64,000 bases of DNA, taken from IMG/VR virus record IMGVR_UViG_3300008267_000018, positions 20,613 through 84,612 of that record. One strand, 5' to 3'. Position numbers and translations under genes: made by a program. Shown here one piece after another: positions 11,708 through 49,672 of the stretch. The stretch comes from a virus. The notes beneath the pieces were generated by a model. That model saw nothing but the letters and a program-made list of their open reading frames with translations, did not search any database and was not told the origin of the DNA. The stretch's first letter is position 1. Each line of letters starts with the position of its first letter.

Positions 11708-12113
11708 TGGGCATAGCCTCCAGCTCGGCGGCGATGACGAGAAGTTGGGCGCGGATCTCGTCCATAGCGTCCCAACGCACAAAAGGTGTGCCGATTAGTG
11801 GAGGAGCAGTCTCTGGCACCACTTGATCCGCAGCAGCTTGCAGGGCGGCGGCAGCAATCCAGCGGGATTCGTTTAGGCAGTCATCTGCCCCCCAGGAGCT
11901 GGCACCGTTGGCGGCATCCAGCACAGCTTCAGCGGCGGGGGAGAGGTCAGTCATGGGCAGGCGATCGCTCACCGGGATGGGCTGCGGCCCCTCCGGCTCG
12001 GGCTGGTCCAGGGCGGCGCGGGCGCGTTCCAGCAAGGCGTGATGGACTTCATCCACCGCATAGGTATTGAACGCGGCGTGAAGCTCAGCGCACAGCTCTC
12101 GGTAGTCAGTCAT
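11700..12113 (-). CDS. fusion of a 'MTDYRELCAEL' module with an 'LSPAA' module
   Basis: 137 aa. Residues 1-53 (MTDYRELCAELHAAFNTYAV, then a Pro/Glu linker) are unlike the neighbours. From residue 54 the protein restarts as MTDLSPAAEAVLDAANGASS and ends LLVIAAELEAMPND, a full LSPAA unit. The internal Met suggests that two once-separate genes fused. The DNA is visibly GC-rich and holds the cyanobacterial HIP1 palindrome GCGATCGC at 11961-11968. Confidence 0.7.
   Translation of the reverse strand: MTDYRELCAELHAAFNTYAVDEVHHALLERARAALDQPEPEGPQPIPVSDRLPMTDLSPAAEAVLDAANGASSWGADDCLNESRWIAAAALQAAADQVVPETAPPLIGTPFVRWDAMDEIRAQLLVIAAELEAMPND
11961..11968. other. HIP1 palindrome GCGATCGC
   Basis: HIP1 is highly over-represented in many cyanobacterial genomes. 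I noticed no other exact copy in this window; this one falls in the GC-rich modular island, consistent with acquisition from a host chromosome. Confidence 0.8.
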
Positions 12114-12453
12114 GGAGTTGCTCTAGTGCGCGGCGGATGGTCTGGGCGGCGTTGTTGTTGATGTGCCCACCTTCCCAAGCGTTCTCAAGCATTTCAAGCG
12201 CCTGCTCCTTCAAGCTCGGCGGATTGGGGCGGCGGGCGGCGCGGATGTAGCGAGCAAAGTCATAAGCATCCTCACCAGCGTCAATTTCAACCAGCCTTAG
12301 GCACGCCTCCAGCTCCTGGTCGGCGCCCCATTGGGCGGCGTGGTGGGCAATAAACAACTCGTATGCCCAGTTCTCGTCGTTGCTTTGAACAGGGCTAGCA
12401 GCTGACCACTGCTGCACCAGCTCCGGCGGTGGGGTGATGGGGTGGTTAGTCAT
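12106..12453 (-). CDS. 'ITPPPELV' family protein, copy 2
   Basis: 115 aa, MTNHPITPPPELVQQW at the start, HHAAQWGADQELEACL, RAARRPNPPSLKEQALEML and ALEQLHD at the end. Paralogue of 11320-11664 and 16727-17071. Codons are GC-rich compared with the surrounding genes. It is the first gene of the overlapping module array, 2 nt after the stop of the gene at 12456. Confidence 0.7.
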   Translation of the reverse strand: MTNHPITPPPELVQQWSAASPVQSNDENWAYELFIAHHAAQWGADQELEACLRLVEIDAGEDAYDFARYIRAARRPNPPSLKEQALEMLENAWEGGHINNNAAQTIRRALEQLHD

Positions 12454-18596: not shown

Positions 18597-18629
18597 TTAG
18601 ATCAAGCCGAGAATCCTAAGCCAGGAGTT
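18597..18629 (-). pseudogene. orphan duplicate 3' end of the 19161-19520 gene
   Basis: Reads NSWLRILGLI-stop in frame, against DSWLSILGLI-stop at the true end of the 119-aa gene: 8 of 10 residues identical, but only 22 of 33 bases, with mostly synonymous changes. It lies directly beyond the HNH/AP2 gene and overlaps its last codons. Confidence 0.75.
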
Positions 18630-19158
18630 TACAACTGATTTCAGGCAATACATTTAATACTGAAAAATCTTTGTAAACATCTTTAACAAAGCAATTGTAT
18701 TCATAGGCTAAACGAGCAGGGCATATGTGATGAGCAAGATGTTTAGACTTACCGTTTAGAGTAACGGTAGACCTAAATAAACCTCTTGTCTTGTGCCATG
18801 AAACCCCCTTGTAACCCGTAGTGTTACTAGATCTAAGTTTCATGTTTGCTGCGTTTTGAGATCTACTTGATAAACGTAGATTTTCAATACAGTTATTAGA
18901 ACTATCTTGATCTATATGATCAACTTCATATTGACCAGGATCTGTACCTGTGGCCAGATAATAAACAATCCTGGCGCACTTATAGTTCTTTCCATTGATT
19001 TGAATTATAGATCGCTTGGATTTAAAATCATAGGCACCTGCCTGTTCACCAGGTTTGCATCGATTATTAAAGCTGTATTTAACAGCAAGACCAGTAGGAA
19101 AACTGGGGCAAAGTTCATAACGCTTTGCCACCAAATCGTAGTCAGGCATGTTGTGCAT
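18616..19158 (-). CDS. HNH homing endonuclease with AP2 domain
   Basis: 180 aa from ATG 19158 (ATG 19149 also possible; a start at 19188 would overlap the neighbour). HNH_3 core around residues 55-105: CARIVYYLATGTDPGQYEVD, then HIDQDSSNNCIENLRLSS, with the usual H-N-N pattern. AP2 domain ~115-160: TGYKGVSWHKTRGLFRSTVT. Homing endonucleases of this type cut an uninvaded allele and are copied in by repair. It sits at the 3' end of 19161-19520 and is followed by a duplicate of that gene's end (18597-18629). Confidence 0.85.
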   Translation of the reverse strand: MHNMPDYDLVAKRYELCPSFPTGLAVKYSFNNRCKPGEQAGAYDFKSKRSIIQINGKNYKCARIVYYLATGTDPGQYEVDHIDQDSSNNCIENLRLSSRSQNAANMKLRSSNTTGYKGVSWHKTRGLFRSTVTLNGKSKHLAHHICPARLAYEYNCFVKDVYKDFSVLNVLPEISCKLLA

Positions 19159-19160
19159 AA

Positions 19161-19520
19161 TTAAATCAATCCAAGAATTGATAACCAAGAATCTACGTGG
19201 TCTGGTTCGACTTCGTCACTGCAGGGAGTGAGGCAGGTGCTGTCGAACGTGTACTCCTCGATCTCTTCGTTGGTTGGGATGTCGTACCATCCTTCGAGAT
19301 CTTCCTTGTCCTGGGCTGAGTAGTTACCACCGGCTGGGATCCAGTAGCACCTGAGGATTCCACGCTTGGTTCTGTAGACATTACCAGTGCAGGCGATGGC
19401 GCCTTTGGGTGCGTCCTGAAAGTCTGTCTCTGCTTGGAACTGCTGGTTACCTTCGTCTTCGTCGAAGGCTTCGTAGCCGAGTGCGTCTGCGATGAGCAGT
19501 TGTTCAGGTTGAAGAGACAT
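19161..19520 (-). CDS. hypothetical acidic protein, target of HNH insertion
   Basis: 119 aa, MSLQPEQLLIADALGYEAFD at the start and HVDSWLSILGLI at the end. It contains GNVYRTKRGILRCYWIPAGG in the middle and is strongly acidic. Its last 11 codons are duplicated beyond the HNH gene, so its current 3' end probably came in with the endonuclease. The upstream 328 nt also carry the out-of-frame tail of the membrane protein 19193-19672. Confidence 0.6.
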   Translation of the reverse strand: MSLQPEQLLIADALGYEAFDEDEGNQQFQAETDFQDAPKGAIACTGNVYRTKRGILRCYWIPAGGNYSAQDKEDLEGWYDIPTNEEIEEYTFDSTCLTPCSDEVEPDHVDSWLSILGLI

Positions 19521-41759: not shown

Positions 41760-42173
41760 ATGATTCTTCATCAGCATAAAAAAACAGGCGCTCGCGTCAA
41801 GATCGTAAGCGAATGGGATAATGGCGATTGGTTCATGGTCGAAGATCAGGACGGTCGCCTTTACACTGCTTACAAAACTGAACTTATCCCTGATGAGCAA
41901 GCTACCAAAAAGGTGACTGCTCTTCAAGTAAAAGATAAGGCGGCACAGGAAGAGCCACGTACTTTTCCTCCGGACACTCGCTTGAACATCAACTCAGCCA
42001 CCGCCCAAATGATCGCAGATCATATCAAGGGCATTGGACTGAAGACTGCCCGAGAGATCAAAGATCTACAGATGTCCTTATCGGGTGAGAGATTTAACAG
42101 CCTTGAGCAGTTGAAACAAATCAAAAGAGTTGACTGGAGTGCGGTCTTGGCAGCCGATTTAATAAGGGTCTGA
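41760..42173 (+). CDS. helix-hairpin-helix protein, target of HNH insertion
   Basis: 137 aa. Residues 1-45 form a small beta domain (ARVKIVSEWDNGDWFMVEDQ). Residues ~72-130 match a ComEA-like HhH unit: LNINSATAQMIADHIKGIGL, then TAREIKDLQ and FNSLEQLKQIKRVDW, which binds DNA backbone. Possibly a head-completion or connector protein. It ends AVLAADLIRV-stop; the same ten residues recur as AVLAADLVRV-stop at 42692-42724 beyond the HNH gene. Confidence 0.7.
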   Translation: MILHQHKKTGARVKIVSEWDNGDWFMVEDQDGRLYTAYKTELIPDEQATKKVTALQVKDKAAQEEPRTFPPDTRLNINSATAQMIADHIKGIGLKTAREIKDLQMSLSGERFNSLEQLKQIKRVDWSAVLAADLIRV

Positions 42174-42187
42174 TTTAAACGCATAAC

Positions 42188-42646
42188 TCAACCAAGAGGG
42201 GTAACACCCCTCTTTTTCATTATGGCGTTGAATTTTTCTTTATTTCTTGTTTTTATGTGATGGCATGTGCCACAGAGAACCTGGCATTTTTTTATTTCTT
42301 TTTCAAGTCTTTTTTTGCTAAACGTACCCCCTCGTCCAATGTTAAATTTTTTATCGTAAAGATGATCAAAATCTAGTCCCTCAGGGTGTTCGTTATACCC
42401 ACAGCATGCGCAACCTTCTGTTATTTTTAAATTGTTCATCCAGTTTCTGTTTTCAGAAGACAAACGTTGAGATCTTTTTTTGTCATAGGCTTTTTTCTTT
42501 TCTTGTTGGTCGGGACTCATCCATACCTCTAAAAAAGTTCCGTCTTGTTTAATTTTTTTAAAGTTGTAACCAATAAAAATAAAGCCGTCTTCCCTGCAGT
42601 CGCCGTGTTTAAAAAATGCCCCAGTTTTTGGATTAATTCTTTTCAT
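42188..42646 (-). CDS. HNH homing endonuclease, antisense to late genes
   Basis: 152 aa. Core at ~75-140: two CxxC pairs (GCACCGYNEHPEGLDFDHLY ... VLCGTCHHIKT) that hold a structural zinc around the HNH site (D-H in FDHLY, H-H in CHH). It is AT-rich compared with neighbours and lies on the opposite strand inside the late operon. Its last codons form one arm of a plus-strand terminator. Inserted behind 41760-42173, with a duplicate of that gene's 3' end on its far side. Confidence 0.85.
   Translation of the reverse strand: MKRINPKTGAFFKHGDCREDGFIFIGYNFKKIKQDGTFLEVWMSPDQQEKKKAYDKKRSQRLSSENRNWMNNLKITEGCACCGYNEHPEGLDFDHLYDKKFNIGRGGTFSKKRLEKEIKKCQVLCGTCHHIKTRNKEKFNAIMKKRGVTPLG
42195..42217 (+). 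terminator. intrinsic terminator behind the HhH gene
   Basis: AGAGGGGT/ACCCCTCT 8-bp stem, 3-nt loop, five T. It overlaps the 3' end of the antisense HNH gene and was probably brought with it. Confidence 0.8.
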
Positions 42647-42691
42647 TTTTAAGATAGCAAAATAAAACTATAACACCTGAAACGTTTTATT

Positions 42692-42724
42692 GCCGTACTT
42701 GCTGCCGACTTAGTCCGCGTTTAA
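42692..42724 (+). pseudogene. orphan duplicate 3' end of the HhH gene
   Basis: AVLAADLVRV-stop, against AVLAADLIRV-stop at 42141-42173: 9 of 10 residues identical but only 21 of 33 bases, most differences at third codon positions or in synonymous Leu/Arg codons. It is followed by the original terminator, so it looks like the end of the gene before HNH insertion. Confidence 0.8.
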
Positions 42725-43514: not shown

Positions 43515-43976
43515 GTGCAATTATCTGACTTTGACAAAAGTAGGGTCAGGTATCACCTGGGCTATTTCACGGTTTCTGTTCCGGCGGGCGATTACGCACG
43601 TCTGGAAGAAGCCCTGAATACCATCCCAGATTCGTACTTCTACGATAAAATTGCTATTCAAATTGGTCGTTGTGATACTGCCGAGAAAAAGACTGAGGTA
43701 GCCACTTCACCTTCTACTCGACTCGAAAGTATTGCTGGTGACGTTGATCGTACTATTCGGTCAAGTAATGCCAAGGAAGCATTAAAAGTTTGGGACGAGA
43801 TCTATCTCTACGAAACAAACCGTTTGGCTGGCATTCTTTACGTACCTAACTACAAGGATCCGTTCCAGGCTCGTTATCGTTACGAACGCTCTGGTGCTGA
43901 GTTTATCCAGGCATTACCTGGACCCGCCGATGTCTCGGTTGGCACTCGCATATATCTTCACGAGCTATGGCGATGA
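43515..43976 (+). CDS. hypothetical virion protein, target of HNH insertion
   Basis: 153 aa, TTG start. Alpha/beta: LGYFTVSVPAGDYARLEEAL, then a helix and a tyrosine-rich C-terminus (YKDPFQARYRYERSGAEFIQ). It ends VGTRIYLHELWR-stop; VGSRIYLHEVWR-stop recurs at 44554-44592 beyond the HNH gene. Possibly a head-tail connector by location; family not recognised. Confidence 0.6.
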   Translation: MQLSDFDKSRVRYHLGYFTVSVPAGDYARLEEALNTIPDSYFYDKIAIQIGRCDTAEKKTEVATSPSTRLESIAGDVDRTIRSSNAKEALKVWDEIYLYETNRLAGILYVPNYKDPFQARYRYERSGAEFIQALPGPADVSVGTRIYLHELWR

Positions 43977-44016
43977 TTTAATCCGTGTATGCTAGGATAT
44001 TGATACACGGATTAAA
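43977..44016 (+). promoter_or_regulatory. 14-bp perfect inverted repeat enclosing a -10 box
   Basis: Arms TTTAATCCGTGTAT (43977-43990) and its complement (44003-44016) surround GCTAGGATATTG, which contains TAGGAT (43993-43998). It begins right after a stop codon and ends four bases before the HNH ATG. Confidence 0.75.
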
Positions 44017-44019
44017 CAG

Positions 44020-44535
44020 ATGGTGGCCCCTTGTCCCTTGCCGGCGATTGAAGAGTTAAAAGAATATTATGAATATATACCAGAAACAGGTGAGTTGTTT
44101 TTAATTAAATCACGTTGCAAGGCTGATAAGCAAAAAATCGGTAAACCAATCGGTTCTCTTGGCGGTCCGGTAAGACGCAAAACGTGGACGATAAAACATA
44201 AAGGGAAAAGCTATTACATTAGTCGAGTTGCCTGGGTATTGATGACCGGTATAGATCCAGGTCTTTTGCTGGTTGAGCATAAAAACAGAAATGCCCAAGA
44301 CAATCGCTGGGAAAATTTAAGGTTGGCTAGTGAGGCGGAAAACAACTACAACAAAATTTTTGTTGGGTATAGCCAAAGGAAAGATAACGAGCTGTACCGT
44401 GTTCGTGTTACTTTGGAAGGTAAACGTATCACCGTAGGCAACTTTAAGACCGAGGAAGAAGCAAAGAAGGCTGCCCTAGATGCGCAAAGACTTTTCTATA
44501 AAGAATTTGCGTGTCTTGATTTAGAATCAAATTAA
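44020..44535 (+). CDS. HNH homing endonuclease with AP2-like C-terminus
   Basis: 171 aa. HNH_3 core ~50-110: YYISRVAWVLMTGIDPGLLL, then VEHKNRNAQDNRWENLRLAS, keeping H and two N. AP2-like DNA-binding part ~120-165: NELYRVRVTLEGKRITVGNF, then EEEAKKAALDAQRLF. Inserted behind 43515-43976 and followed by a duplicate of that gene's 3' end. Its start is controlled by a large inverted repeat. Confidence 0.85.
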   Translation: MVAPCPLPAIEELKEYYEYIPETGELFLIKSRCKADKQKIGKPIGSLGGPVRRKTWTIKHKGKSYYISRVAWVLMTGIDPGLLLVEHKNRNAQDNRWENLRLASEAENNYNKIFVGYSQRKDNELYRVRVTLEGKRITVGNFKTEEEAKKAALDAQRLFYKEFACLDLESN

Positions 44536-44553
44536 TAAATAAAGTAGCCCGCT

Positions 44554-44592
44554 GTCGGTTCACGCATCTATCTACATGAGGTTTGGAGGTAA
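44554..44592 (+). pseudogene. orphan duplicate 3' end of the 43515 gene
   Basis: VGSRIYLHEVWR-stop against VGTRIYLHELWR-stop at 43938-43976: 10 of 12 residues identical, 27 of 39 bases. Its last codons TGG AGG TAA contain the Shine-Dalgarno of the next gene (ATG 44595), which explains why this fragment is kept. Confidence 0.8.
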
Positions 44593-44594
44593 TT

Positions 44595-45659
44595 ATGCCT
44601 AGTTTTGCAGGCGGAAAAGAACTAGCTGGTTTAAAGGGACTGCTTGGTCGCGCTGGGTATGGCGCAGGAGTTTTTACGGCCCCTTCTTGGATGCCGGCAA
44701 TTTTTAACCAAGGTCAGTCATCTTCTGCGACTAGTGCTGCAGTAAATAGAGCTGCACAAACAATGCCCGGTTTGAAACCGAATCCACAAACTGATATCGG
44801 TAGGCGATTGGGTAATGAACTGCTTTATGCAGGCGGCCAGATCATGCAAGGACGCCGTCCTTATACTGCTCCTGCACAGCAAGCACAGCAGACTGGCATG
44901 TATGGACGGTATGCAAGACCCTCTGCACAAAGTTCTACACCTGGAGTAAGTGCAGGTCCAAGTTCTTCTCCTGCTGCTGAGCGTGCCTACCAACAAGAAG
45001 TATCACGCGTTGCTCAGCTCACGGCACAAGACCCTGAGCTTCAGCGTTATGAACGCGCTCGCGCTGGTGCAAAGACCCAAGAAGATATGAATGCTGCCCG
45101 TGATATTGGTATGCAAATCTGGGCACAAAGGCATGGTGGTCTTGCCGCCAACGTGAAGCCTGGTCAGTCGGGTTACGACGCAATTCAAGGCACCATTAAC
45201 GCAGGTGCCATGGGCCAACCGACTGAGATGGGTGCATTTGCTGGTGCTCAGCCTTCTAGTTTGCTTTTCAACCCCTCTAATCCGCTTGCAACTGCACCTC
45301 CGACTGGTCCAGTTGATTACACAACGGTGGCGCCTTCCGCATTTACAGGAGCGACTGGTCTTGGTACTGAGTCCAGCTATTTTGGTGGTGCAGCCAACCA
45401 ACAACAAGCTAAGATGTTTACCCGGTTCCAAGATGCAGCCCCTGGTGGAACGCCCCTGCAGACCGGCATGAACGCCCTGCTTGCCCCTGGTAGCATCCCT
45501 GCTCCCATGGCCTCCTACCAGGGCGCCCAGGGCCTTTCTCCTGTTGGCACCAGCTTGACTCCTGACGCAAATGCGTATGCTTCAAGCCTGGCATCAGACA
45601 AGGCCCAGGCACAAGCCGAAGAATTCAAGAAGAAACTGTTAAGCGCACAAGCTAAATAA
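44595..45659 (+). CDS. hypothetical virion protein, 354 aa
   Basis: Start ATG 44595 (MPSFAGGKELAGLKGLLGRA), 3 bases after TGGAGGTAA. Low-complexity Ala/Gln/Pro/Ser-rich throughout (SPAAERAYQQEVSRVAQLTA is the most ordered part). Probably a structural or internal virion protein; not recognised. Confidence 0.55.
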   Translation: MPSFAGGKELAGLKGLLGRAGYGAGVFTAPSWMPAIFNQGQSSSATSAAVNRAAQTMPGLKPNPQTDIGRRLGNELLYAGGQIMQGRRPYTAPAQQAQQTGMYGRYARPSAQSSTPGVSAGPSSSPAAERAYQQEVSRVAQLTAQDPELQRYERARAGAKTQEDMNAARDIGMQIWAQRHGGLAANVKPGQSGYDAIQGTINAGAMGQPTEMGAFAGAQPSSLLFNPSNPLATAPPTGPVDYTTVAPSAFTGATGLGTESSYFGGAANQQQAKMFTRFQDAAPGGTPLQTGMNALLAPGSIPAPMASYQGAQGLSPVGTSLTPDANAYASSLASDKAQAQAEEFKKKLLSAQAK

Positions 45660-49303: not shown

Positions 49304-49672
49304 ATGTTTTGCAACGAGCACGAGCCCCTTGCTTTGCTAGTTGAATTAACACCAAAACTTGCTAAAAAACGTTTTCGAGATGAAATTTATAAATCCTGGA
49401 GCCACTGCTGTGGTTACTGTGGAGATCCGGCAACAAGCTTAGATCATATAGTACCCAGATTTAAATCAGGATCTTCTAATCGTCACAATCTCTTACCTGC
49501 TTGCAGGCGGTGCAATACTAACAAGGCCAGTGAAAAAATGCAAGAATGGTATTTAAAGCAGTCTTTTTTTGATGCCTTAAAACTTGAAAAAATTACAAAC
49601 TGGATGCAACAAGATACACTAGAATTACTACCCTGGAAGCCCAGGCTTGACGATAAAAATTTTGCTGCGTAA
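49304..49672 (+). CDS. HNH endonuclease (McrA-like core)
   Basis: 122 aa. Core CCGYCGDPATSLDHIVPR, then GSSNRHNLLPACRRCNTNKA: two CxxC pairs with D-H, N and N in the usual HNH order, so likely active. Unlike the 42, 44 and 18 kb HNH genes, no duplicate gene end is visible nearby. It may be a homing gene or a packaging-associated nuclease. Confidence 0.8.
   Translation: MFCNEHEPLALLVELTPKLAKKRFRDEIYKSWSHCCGYCGDPATSLDHIVPRFKSGSSNRHNLLPACRRCNTNKASEKMQEWYLKQSFFDALKLEKITNWMQQDTLELLPWKPRLDDKNFAA

What the first reader, a model, noticed from the sequence alone, without database searches (positions are those of the whole stretch)
43515..44595. Second HNH insertion with duplicated 3' end that still supplies the next Shine-Dalgarno (case 2)
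43515-43976 ends VGTRIYLHELWR-stop; after the HNH/AP2 gene, VGSRIYLHEVWR-stop reappears at 44554-44592 (10/12 residues, 27/39 bases). The orphan's last codons TGG AGG TAA form the Shine-Dalgarno for ATG 44595. So the original 3' end had to stay with the downstream gene while the invaded gene got a new one. This explains why such duplicates persist.
Basis: partly seen in the sequence, partly recalled or inferred. Interest (0 to 1): 0.85.

Follow-up and report, generated by a model that had tools for sequence, protein, structure and literature searches.

The report
Homing nuclease carrying replacement gene end
In this freshwater cyanophage a selfish DNA-cutting gene has landed inside the end of another gene and brought a differently spelled copy of that end with it, so the host gene stays complete while its original end stays behind as the likely ribosome-binding site of the next gene; the layout resembles laboratory 'home-and-rescue' gene drives.

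Summary
The gene at 43515-43976 ends VGTRIYLHELWR, and a second copy of that end (10/12 residues, 27/39 bases) lies after the HNH gene, directly before ATG 44595.

About 95 distinct empty-site junctions settle the direction. Nearly all end like the downstream 'orphan', with a Shine-Dalgarno in the last codons; the upstream end is new. In a near-isogenic pair (L095 occupied, L196 empty), 2.9 kb upstream is 98% identical and 309 bases downstream, orphan included, are 100% identical. The gene's end is replaced and the insert (about 0.6 kb) is extra.

The new end travels with the nuclease. Across 13 occupied sites, HNH distances follow tail distances (r=0.75, p=0.0002) but not the orphan or the host gene. 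Synonymous constraint stays with the orphan and is released in the tail.

Two more HNH genes in this window have the same layout in other genes, and one relative shows the mirror image at a 5' end.

Best reading: a homing element carrying a synonymously divergent replacement gene end, like fungal-mitochondrial mobile ORFs and engineered home-and-rescue drives. Cleavage, target immunity and SD necessity are inferred. I found no earlier phage description, but that search was limited. New variant of a known kind.

The parts
43515..43976 (+). Invaded gene (phrog_29158, unknown function, 153 aa), very conserved among S-EIV1-like cyanophages
   Evidence: more than 590 relatives in viral contigs; protein 88-97% identical across 17 diverse members
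43932..43976 (+). New, element-borne 3' end of the gene (VSVGTRIYLHELWR-stop), synonymously divergent from the native end; the left boundary is approximate
   Evidence: identity to empty relatives drops to 55-73% here even when the rest of the gene is over 90% identical; tail distances follow HNH distances, Mantel r=0.75
43977..44016 (+). 40-bp palindrome (14-bp stem) just before the HNH start, with an extended -10-like TGCTAGGAT in its loop; possible promoter within a translation-blocking hairpin
   Evidence: present in related elements, 86.5% of stem cells paired, covariation weak; promoter reading is by eye
44020..44535 (+). HNH_3 endonuclease gene with a weak AP2-like C-terminus (phrog_99 family), the presumed homing endonuclease
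   Evidence: closest solved sequence is I-HmuI 1u3e, weak E 0.05
44551..44592 (+). Orphan: displaced native 3' end of the invaded gene (AVGSRIYLHEVWR-stop)
   Evidence: matches the 3' ends of empty-site relatives; same state at 13 occupied sites
44585..44590 (+). GGAGGT Shine-Dalgarno inside the orphan's last codons
   Evidence: sequence; most of 95 distinct empty junctions show a GGAGG/GAGG/GGAGA/AGGT-type SD before the next start
44595..45659 (+). Downstream gene using the orphan's SD; same start as the S-EIV1 ortholog; a different gene occupies this position in many relatives
42144..42173 (+). Case 1: new divergent 3' end of gene 41760-42173
   Evidence: 18/30 identical to empty relative L019, while the preceding 380 bases are 349/380
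42188..42646 (-). Case 1: HNH gene of another family (phrog_3106 type), opposite orientation
   Evidence: same layout in L001, L002, L007, L016, L057, L061, L078
42695..42724 (+). Case 1: orphan native 3' end, followed by the native terminator-like hairpin
   Evidence: 108/110 identical to empty relative L019, including what follows
19161..19190 (-). Case 3: new divergent 3' end of gene 19161-19520
   Evidence: 21/30 identical to empty relative L139, while the orphan and following bases are 86/90 identical
18616..19158 (-). Case 3: HNH_3 endonuclease gene (phrog_99 family)
18597..18626 (-). Case 3: orphan native 3' end; the HNH stop codon lies inside it

Best explanation
This is a free-standing HNH homing element of about 0.6 kb that inserts inside the last codons of a conserved phage gene and carries its own divergent copy of the part it cuts off. 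The copy fuses in frame, so the invaded protein stays complete. The native end is pushed downstream as an orphan and goes on supplying the Shine-Dalgarno for the next gene. Steps shown by sequence: the orphan is native; the tail is foreign to the host gene and is inherited with the nuclease; the sites are patchily occupied in a way that needs repeated gain or loss; the layout recurs at three genes here, plus a 5' mirror image in a relative. Steps inferred: the HNH protein cuts the native junction; the tail's different codons make the occupied allele uncuttable and hinder its loss by recombination; repair of the cut copies tail plus HNH together; the orphan is kept at this site because the next gene needs its SD.
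For: Empty relatives end like the orphan. Near-isogenic pair L095/L196: 98.2% over 2.9 kb upstream, 100% over 309 bases downstream including the orphan, with about 0.6 kb inserted and the tail replaced. L089 vs empty L016: 7 of 140 upstream codons differ but 8 of 11 tail codons (p=1.7e-7). Tail identity of occupied vs empty genes is about 0.66 whatever the background similarity; empty-empty pairs over 90% alike never fall below 0.76. Mantel: HNH vs tail r=0.75, p=0.0002; HNH vs orphan 0.11; HNH vs host gene 0.04. Host-gene tree: at least 5 state changes forced by well-supported branches. In L184 and L095 the tail is of a different protein type from the orphan (YLNTNWR vs YLHTVWR; YLHDIWR vs YLNLAWR). 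Constraint stays with the orphan: His, Glu and Val codons have zero synonymous diversity in 12 orphans and 0-0.08 in 52 empty genes, while the corresponding tail codons have 0.44-0.76. Recurrence: cases 1 and 3. 5' mirror in L007: orphan 83/84 native; the new 5' end has 19 of 28 codons changed with 1 amino-acid change and a GGAGG-ATG of its own.
Against: No cleavage, homing or translation was measured. Synonymous change in the tails (77 of 104 codons) is only slightly above what random codon choice gives (67.7), so selection for recoding is not demonstrated. L003 has a tail-like end without HNH or TGGAGG. Orphans may persist simply because insertions are recent. The 13 elements share ancestry and are not independent.
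Confidence: 0.82

Rival explanations
1. The tail is not carried as a rescue part. It is ordinary flanking DNA of a distant donor phage, co-converted along with an intergenic HNH gene, so the 'recoding' is only donor-recipient divergence.
For: Co-conversion of flanks is usual in homing (PMC2988022); tail divergence is close to synonymous saturation expected by chance; horizontal transfer of a foreign end is proposed for fungal mitochondrial cases (PMC3630166).
Against: A pure exchange would replace the native end, not leave both copies in tandem; the tail and HNH stay linked across many hosts; in the closest pairs the divergent stretch is confined to the end of the gene.
Confidence: 0.3
2. The orphan is kept by nothing more than recent insertion; its Shine-Dalgarno role is incidental.
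For: Most orphans still encode an intact end; the case-3 orphan in the window has no adjacent start codon.
Against: At the finding's site all 13 full-length occupied loci keep an orphan with the initiation region in register, including ones whose coding part has decayed (L095, L205), while case-3 relatives L140 and L153 have lost the orphan.
Confidence: 0.3
3. The insert is a self-splicing intron or an intein, and the downstream copy is the second exon or extein.
For: HNH genes are common in introns; the orphan is still in a readable frame in most loci.
Against: No group I or II intron found in the whole window at gathering scores, nor in 43900-44650 up to E=1; the upstream copy already has its own end and stop codon; the HNH gene is separate, and in case 1 it lies on the opposite strand.
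Confidence: 0.02
4. Segmental duplication of the gene end followed by HNH insertion between the copies.
For: Two copies flank the HNH gene.
Against: The copies are not sisters: in L095 and L184 the tail and orphan are of different protein types; tail distances follow the HNH, not the orphan; no empty relative with a tandem duplicated end was noticed among the junctions listed.
Confidence: 0.04

Closest known systems
Mobile ORFs of fungal mitochondria (Allomyces macrogynus atp6; Glomus sp. atp6, atp9, cox2, nad3; PMC3630166)
   Same: Endonuclease ORF inserted at a gene's 3' end with a foreign in-frame C-terminus; the displaced native C-terminus lies downstream and is closest to uninvaded relatives; DNA divergence is mostly synonymous.
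   Different: Those are mitochondrial, with a LAGLIDADG ORF reported for Glomus atp6. Here the elements are phage HNH genes of at least two families, in both orientations, also at a 5' end, and the displaced end keeps the next gene's Shine-Dalgarno.
Engineered home-and-rescue (HomeR) gene drives (PMC7968924)
   Same: Nuclease cassette inserted in the 3' coding end of a target gene with a re-coded copy of the last residues, giving rescue and resistance to cutting.
   Different: HomeR is CRISPR-based and designed; here it is natural, with 10-15 residues replaced, and immunity of the tail to cutting is inferred.
Free-standing T4-type homing endonucleases (segB, mobE; PMC2988022)
   Same: Intron-less nuclease genes next to phage genes, some with a hairpin and internal promoter controlling translation.
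   Different: [quoted passage not shown] no replacement gene end is described in the passages read.
I-HmuI and phrog_99 HNH_3 endonucleases
   Same: Protein family of the HNH gene; weak sequence match to I-HmuI.
   Different: I-HmuI is intron-encoded (from memory). Eight enterobacterial and Pseudomonas phage loci with related HNH genes showed no duplicated gene ends in my scan.
Integrating elements that regenerate a gene's 3' end (for example e14 in icd; from memory)
   Same: The insert supplies an alternative gene end and displaces the native one.
   Different: Those use an integrase; the only long ORF in the 574-base insert is the HNH gene.

Membership tests
HNH homing endonuclease (Pfam HNH_3, phrog_99) | HNH_3 domain above curated cut-off | tested here: met
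   44.5 bits vs cut-off 24.8; phrog_99 E 6e-45
HNH homing endonuclease (Pfam HNH_3, phrog_99) | AP2 DNA-binding domain (AP2-HNH subclass) | tested here: inconclusive
   17.4 bits, below the 33.3 cut-off
HNH homing endonuclease (Pfam HNH_3, phrog_99) | Occupied and empty alleles at one exact site, patchy across the host tree | tested here: met
HNH homing endonuclease (Pfam HNH_3, phrog_99) | Sequence-specific cleavage of the empty allele and transfer by repair | not testable with these tools
   needs protein and phage crosses
Fungal mitochondrial mobile ORF with gene-end replacement | Foreign in-frame C-terminus + endonuclease ORF + displaced native C-terminus | tested here: met
Fungal mitochondrial mobile ORF with gene-end replacement | Fungal mitochondrial location | tested here: not met
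   S-EIV1-like cyanophage locus; it works like one but is not filed as a member
Group I intron with homing endonuclease | Intron RNA structure around the HNH gene | tested here: not met
   no Rfam match; complete gene end and stop before the HNH gene
Integrase-type element regenerating a gene end | Integrase gene in the element | tested here: not met
   insert of 554-574 bases whose longest ORF is the HNH gene
Home-and-rescue gene drive (as a working principle) | Replacement end restores the protein | tested here: met
   in-frame native-like ends at all 13 sites; that the protein works is not tested
Home-and-rescue gene drive (as a working principle) | Recoding is selected and blocks cutting | tested here: inconclusive
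   77 codons changed vs 67.7 expected from codon usage; cutting not testable

The most novel reading that the evidence does not exclude
A natural home-and-rescue drive: the tail is under selection to differ from the native end at the DNA level while keeping the protein, because this protects the occupied allele from its own nuclease and from loss by recombination. It is a general strategy by which several unrelated phage HNH elements colonise gene ends, 5' or 3', adding whatever expression signal the insertion severs. Empty alleles with a tail-like VSVGT stretch joined to a native end would then be footprints of past occupation.
Probability: 0.45. Interest if true: 0.78.

Novelty: new variant of a known kind. 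Interest (0 to 1): 0.62.

Why it matters
It would show that intron-less phage nucleases can live inside coding sequence without splicing, by carrying a replacement for what they destroy. It gives near-isogenic occupied/empty pairs for testing a natural analogue of engineered home-and-rescue drives, including how such drives are lost. It also separates, in one natural experiment, the two roles of a gene's last codons: coding goes with the new tail, ribosome binding stays with the orphan.

Tried and rejected
Intron or intein: no RNA family match and wrong layout. Tandem duplication: tail and orphan are not sisters. Strong selection for recoding: only a weak excess over codon-usage expectation. 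RNA-structure claim for the palindrome: paired but covariation not above shuffles, so kept as a suggestion. Same architecture in eight enterobacterial and Pseudomonas phage loci with related HNH genes: not found. A hit at 12106-12453 in the window scan is a tandem paralogue family, not an insertion. Structure of the invaded protein: model too poor to use (pLDDT 36), so its function stays unknown. Literature searches for this layout in phages returned nothing, but the library is partial and those queries were narrow. The first DNA search of the region failed on length and was replaced by protein searches.

Full report
OBSERVATION. The gene at 43515-43976 ends VSVGTRIYLHELWR-TGA. The HNH gene is 44020-44535. 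After it, AVGSRIYLHEVWR-TAA is readable at 44551-44592, and the next gene starts at ATG 44595 with GGAGGT at 44585-44590. The two ends share 27/39 bases and 10/12 residues. A scan of all ORF ends in the window against the 2.5 kb downstream put this pair first by a wide margin (score 60; then 41, 38, 37, 29). The 41 and 37 turned out to be two more cases of the same kind; the 38 is a paralogue family.

WHICH COPY IS NATIVE. The window is from an S-EIV1-like freshwater cyanophage (84.6 kb record; S-EIV1 is the only named relative in the phage collection). The invaded gene has more than 590 relatives in viral contigs. I compared about 95 distinct junctions counted as empty (one of them, L234, looks like an occupied site of the L243 type). 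Nearly all end like the orphan, and about 85 have a GGAGG/GAGG/GGAGA/AGGT-type Shine-Dalgarno before the next start, either in ...TGGAGGTAANNATG or in the overlapping form ...TGGCGNTAATG. So the orphan is the native end. The cleanest proof is the pair L095 (occupied) and L196 (empty): 98.2% identical over 2.9 kb upstream and 100% over 309 bases downstream, orphan included. The gene itself is identical for its first 240 bases and diverges towards its end, where YLNLAWR has become YLHDIWR. L089 against L016 gives the same picture: 7 of 140 upstream codons differ but 8 of 11 tail codons (Fisher p 1.7e-7). Across all pairs, the tails of occupied genes are about 66% identical to empty ends whatever the similarity of the rest of the gene. 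Empty-empty pairs over 90% alike never fall below 76%, and the main outlier among empty genes is L003.

THE TAIL BELONGS TO THE ELEMENT. For 13 occupied loci I compared distance matrices. HNH protein distance follows tail distance (Mantel r=0.75, p=0.0002) but not orphan distance (r=0.11) nor the host gene upstream (r=0.04). The host-gene tree needs at least 5 changes between occupied and empty on well-supported branches. In L184 and L095 the tail is of another protein type than the orphan. Tail and HNH therefore move as one unit of 554-574 inserted bases plus the tail.

WHAT STAYS WITH THE ORPHAN. In 52 empty genes the codons for His-Glu-Val near the end show synonymous diversity of 0, 0.08 and 0, against a gene-wide seven-codon-window median of 0.43. 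In 12 orphans they are 0, 0, 0. In the tails, which encode the same part of the protein, the corresponding codons are 0.44, 0.53 and 0.76. Synonymous constraint thus goes with position before the next start codon, not with coding, as expected for a translation-initiation region. Two orphans have decayed as coding sequence but not as initiation region. L095 has lost its first residues while the last 30 or so bases match L196 exactly. L205 has lost the tryptophan codon but keeps GAGGTAATTATG. It sits among native-ended relatives and its next gene starts within the tail, which I read as loss of the element.

GENERALITY. Three of the four HNH genes noticed in the window have this layout. Case 1: gene 41760-42173, an HNH gene of another family on the opposite strand, and orphan 42695-42724. 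That orphan with its following sequence is 108/110 identical to empty relative L019, while the new 30-base end is 18/30. Case 3: gene 19161-19520 (-), HNH 18616-19158 (-), orphan 18597-18626. Orphan plus following bases are 86/90 identical to empty relative L139, the new end 21/30. In occupied relatives L140 and L153 of case 3 the orphan is gone, so orphans are not always kept. The mirror image occurs in L007: an HNH gene inserted near codon 29 of the same host gene leaves a 5' orphan (83/84 native). The complete gene downstream has 19 of its first 28 codons changed with one amino-acid change, plus its own GGAGG and ATG. Eight loci from enterobacterial and Pseudomonas phages with related HNH genes showed no such duplicates.

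CONTROL OF THE NUCLEASE (inference). A 40-bp palindrome at 43977-44016 lies just before the HNH start and recurs in related elements. Its loop holds an extended -10-like TGCTAGGAT. A transcript from there would lack the left arm, whereas read-through transcripts would form the hairpin. This resembles T4 segB and mobE (PMC2988022). Covariation does not exceed shuffles, so this is only a suggestion.

MECHANISM. Shown: native orphan, foreign linked tail, repeated gain or loss, recurrence. Inferred: the HNH protein cuts the native junction; repair from an occupied genome copies tail and HNH; the tail's codons no longer fit the nuclease and give little homology for recombinational loss. The amount of recoding (77 of 104 comparable codons) is only a little above random codon choice (67.7). 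Selection for recoding is therefore possible but unproven, and a divergent donor end is the main rival.

COMPARISON. Fungal mitochondrial mobile ORFs do the same thing: foreign in-frame C-terminus, endonuclease ORF, displaced native C-terminus nearest to uninvaded relatives, mostly synonymous differences (PMC3630166). Engineered HomeR drives use the same design on purpose, with a re-coded stretch of 22 or 27 residues at the 3' end of an essential gene (PMC7968924). What appears new is the natural use of this by phage HNH genes of at least two families, at both gene ends, with the displaced end still positioned as the next gene's ribosome-binding site. My literature search was narrow and the library partial.

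LIMITS. All sequence evidence is from metagenomic contigs and one isolate. The elements share ancestry, so p-values are indicative. The function of the invaded protein is unknown and its structure prediction failed.

Noticed in passing
window 41760-42724: Case 1: an HNH gene of another family on the opposite strand sits between a new divergent gene end and the displaced native end with its terminator-like hairpin.
   Followed up: yes
window 18597-19520 (-): Case 3: a third HNH gene with the same layout; the HNH stop codon lies within the orphan. Related loci L140 and L153 are occupied but lack the orphan.
   Followed up: yes
L007 4392-5090: Mirror image: HNH inserted near the 5' end of the same host gene, with a recoded N-terminus, its own SD and ATG, and a 5' orphan.
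   Followed up: yes
L003 5400-5560: Tail-like gene end without HNH or TGGAGG; the next gene's ATG lies inside the tail. Probably an element loss.
   Followed up: partly
junction after 43976 homologs in L001-L080 and L167-L245: The gene downstream of this conserved junction differs greatly between close relatives, as if the conserved 3' end with its SD were a docking site for exchanging downstream genes.
   Followed up: no
L016, L017, L004, L180 and others: Empty alleles whose VSVGT stretch looks like the element tail but whose last codons are native; possible footprints of lost elements or resistant alleles.
   Followed up: partly
window 43977-44016: Palindrome with an extended -10-like loop directly before the HNH start codon; the HNH gene has no obvious Shine-Dalgarno.
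   Followed up: partly
window 49304-49672: A fourth HNH gene in the window without a detectable duplicated gene end.
   Followed up: no
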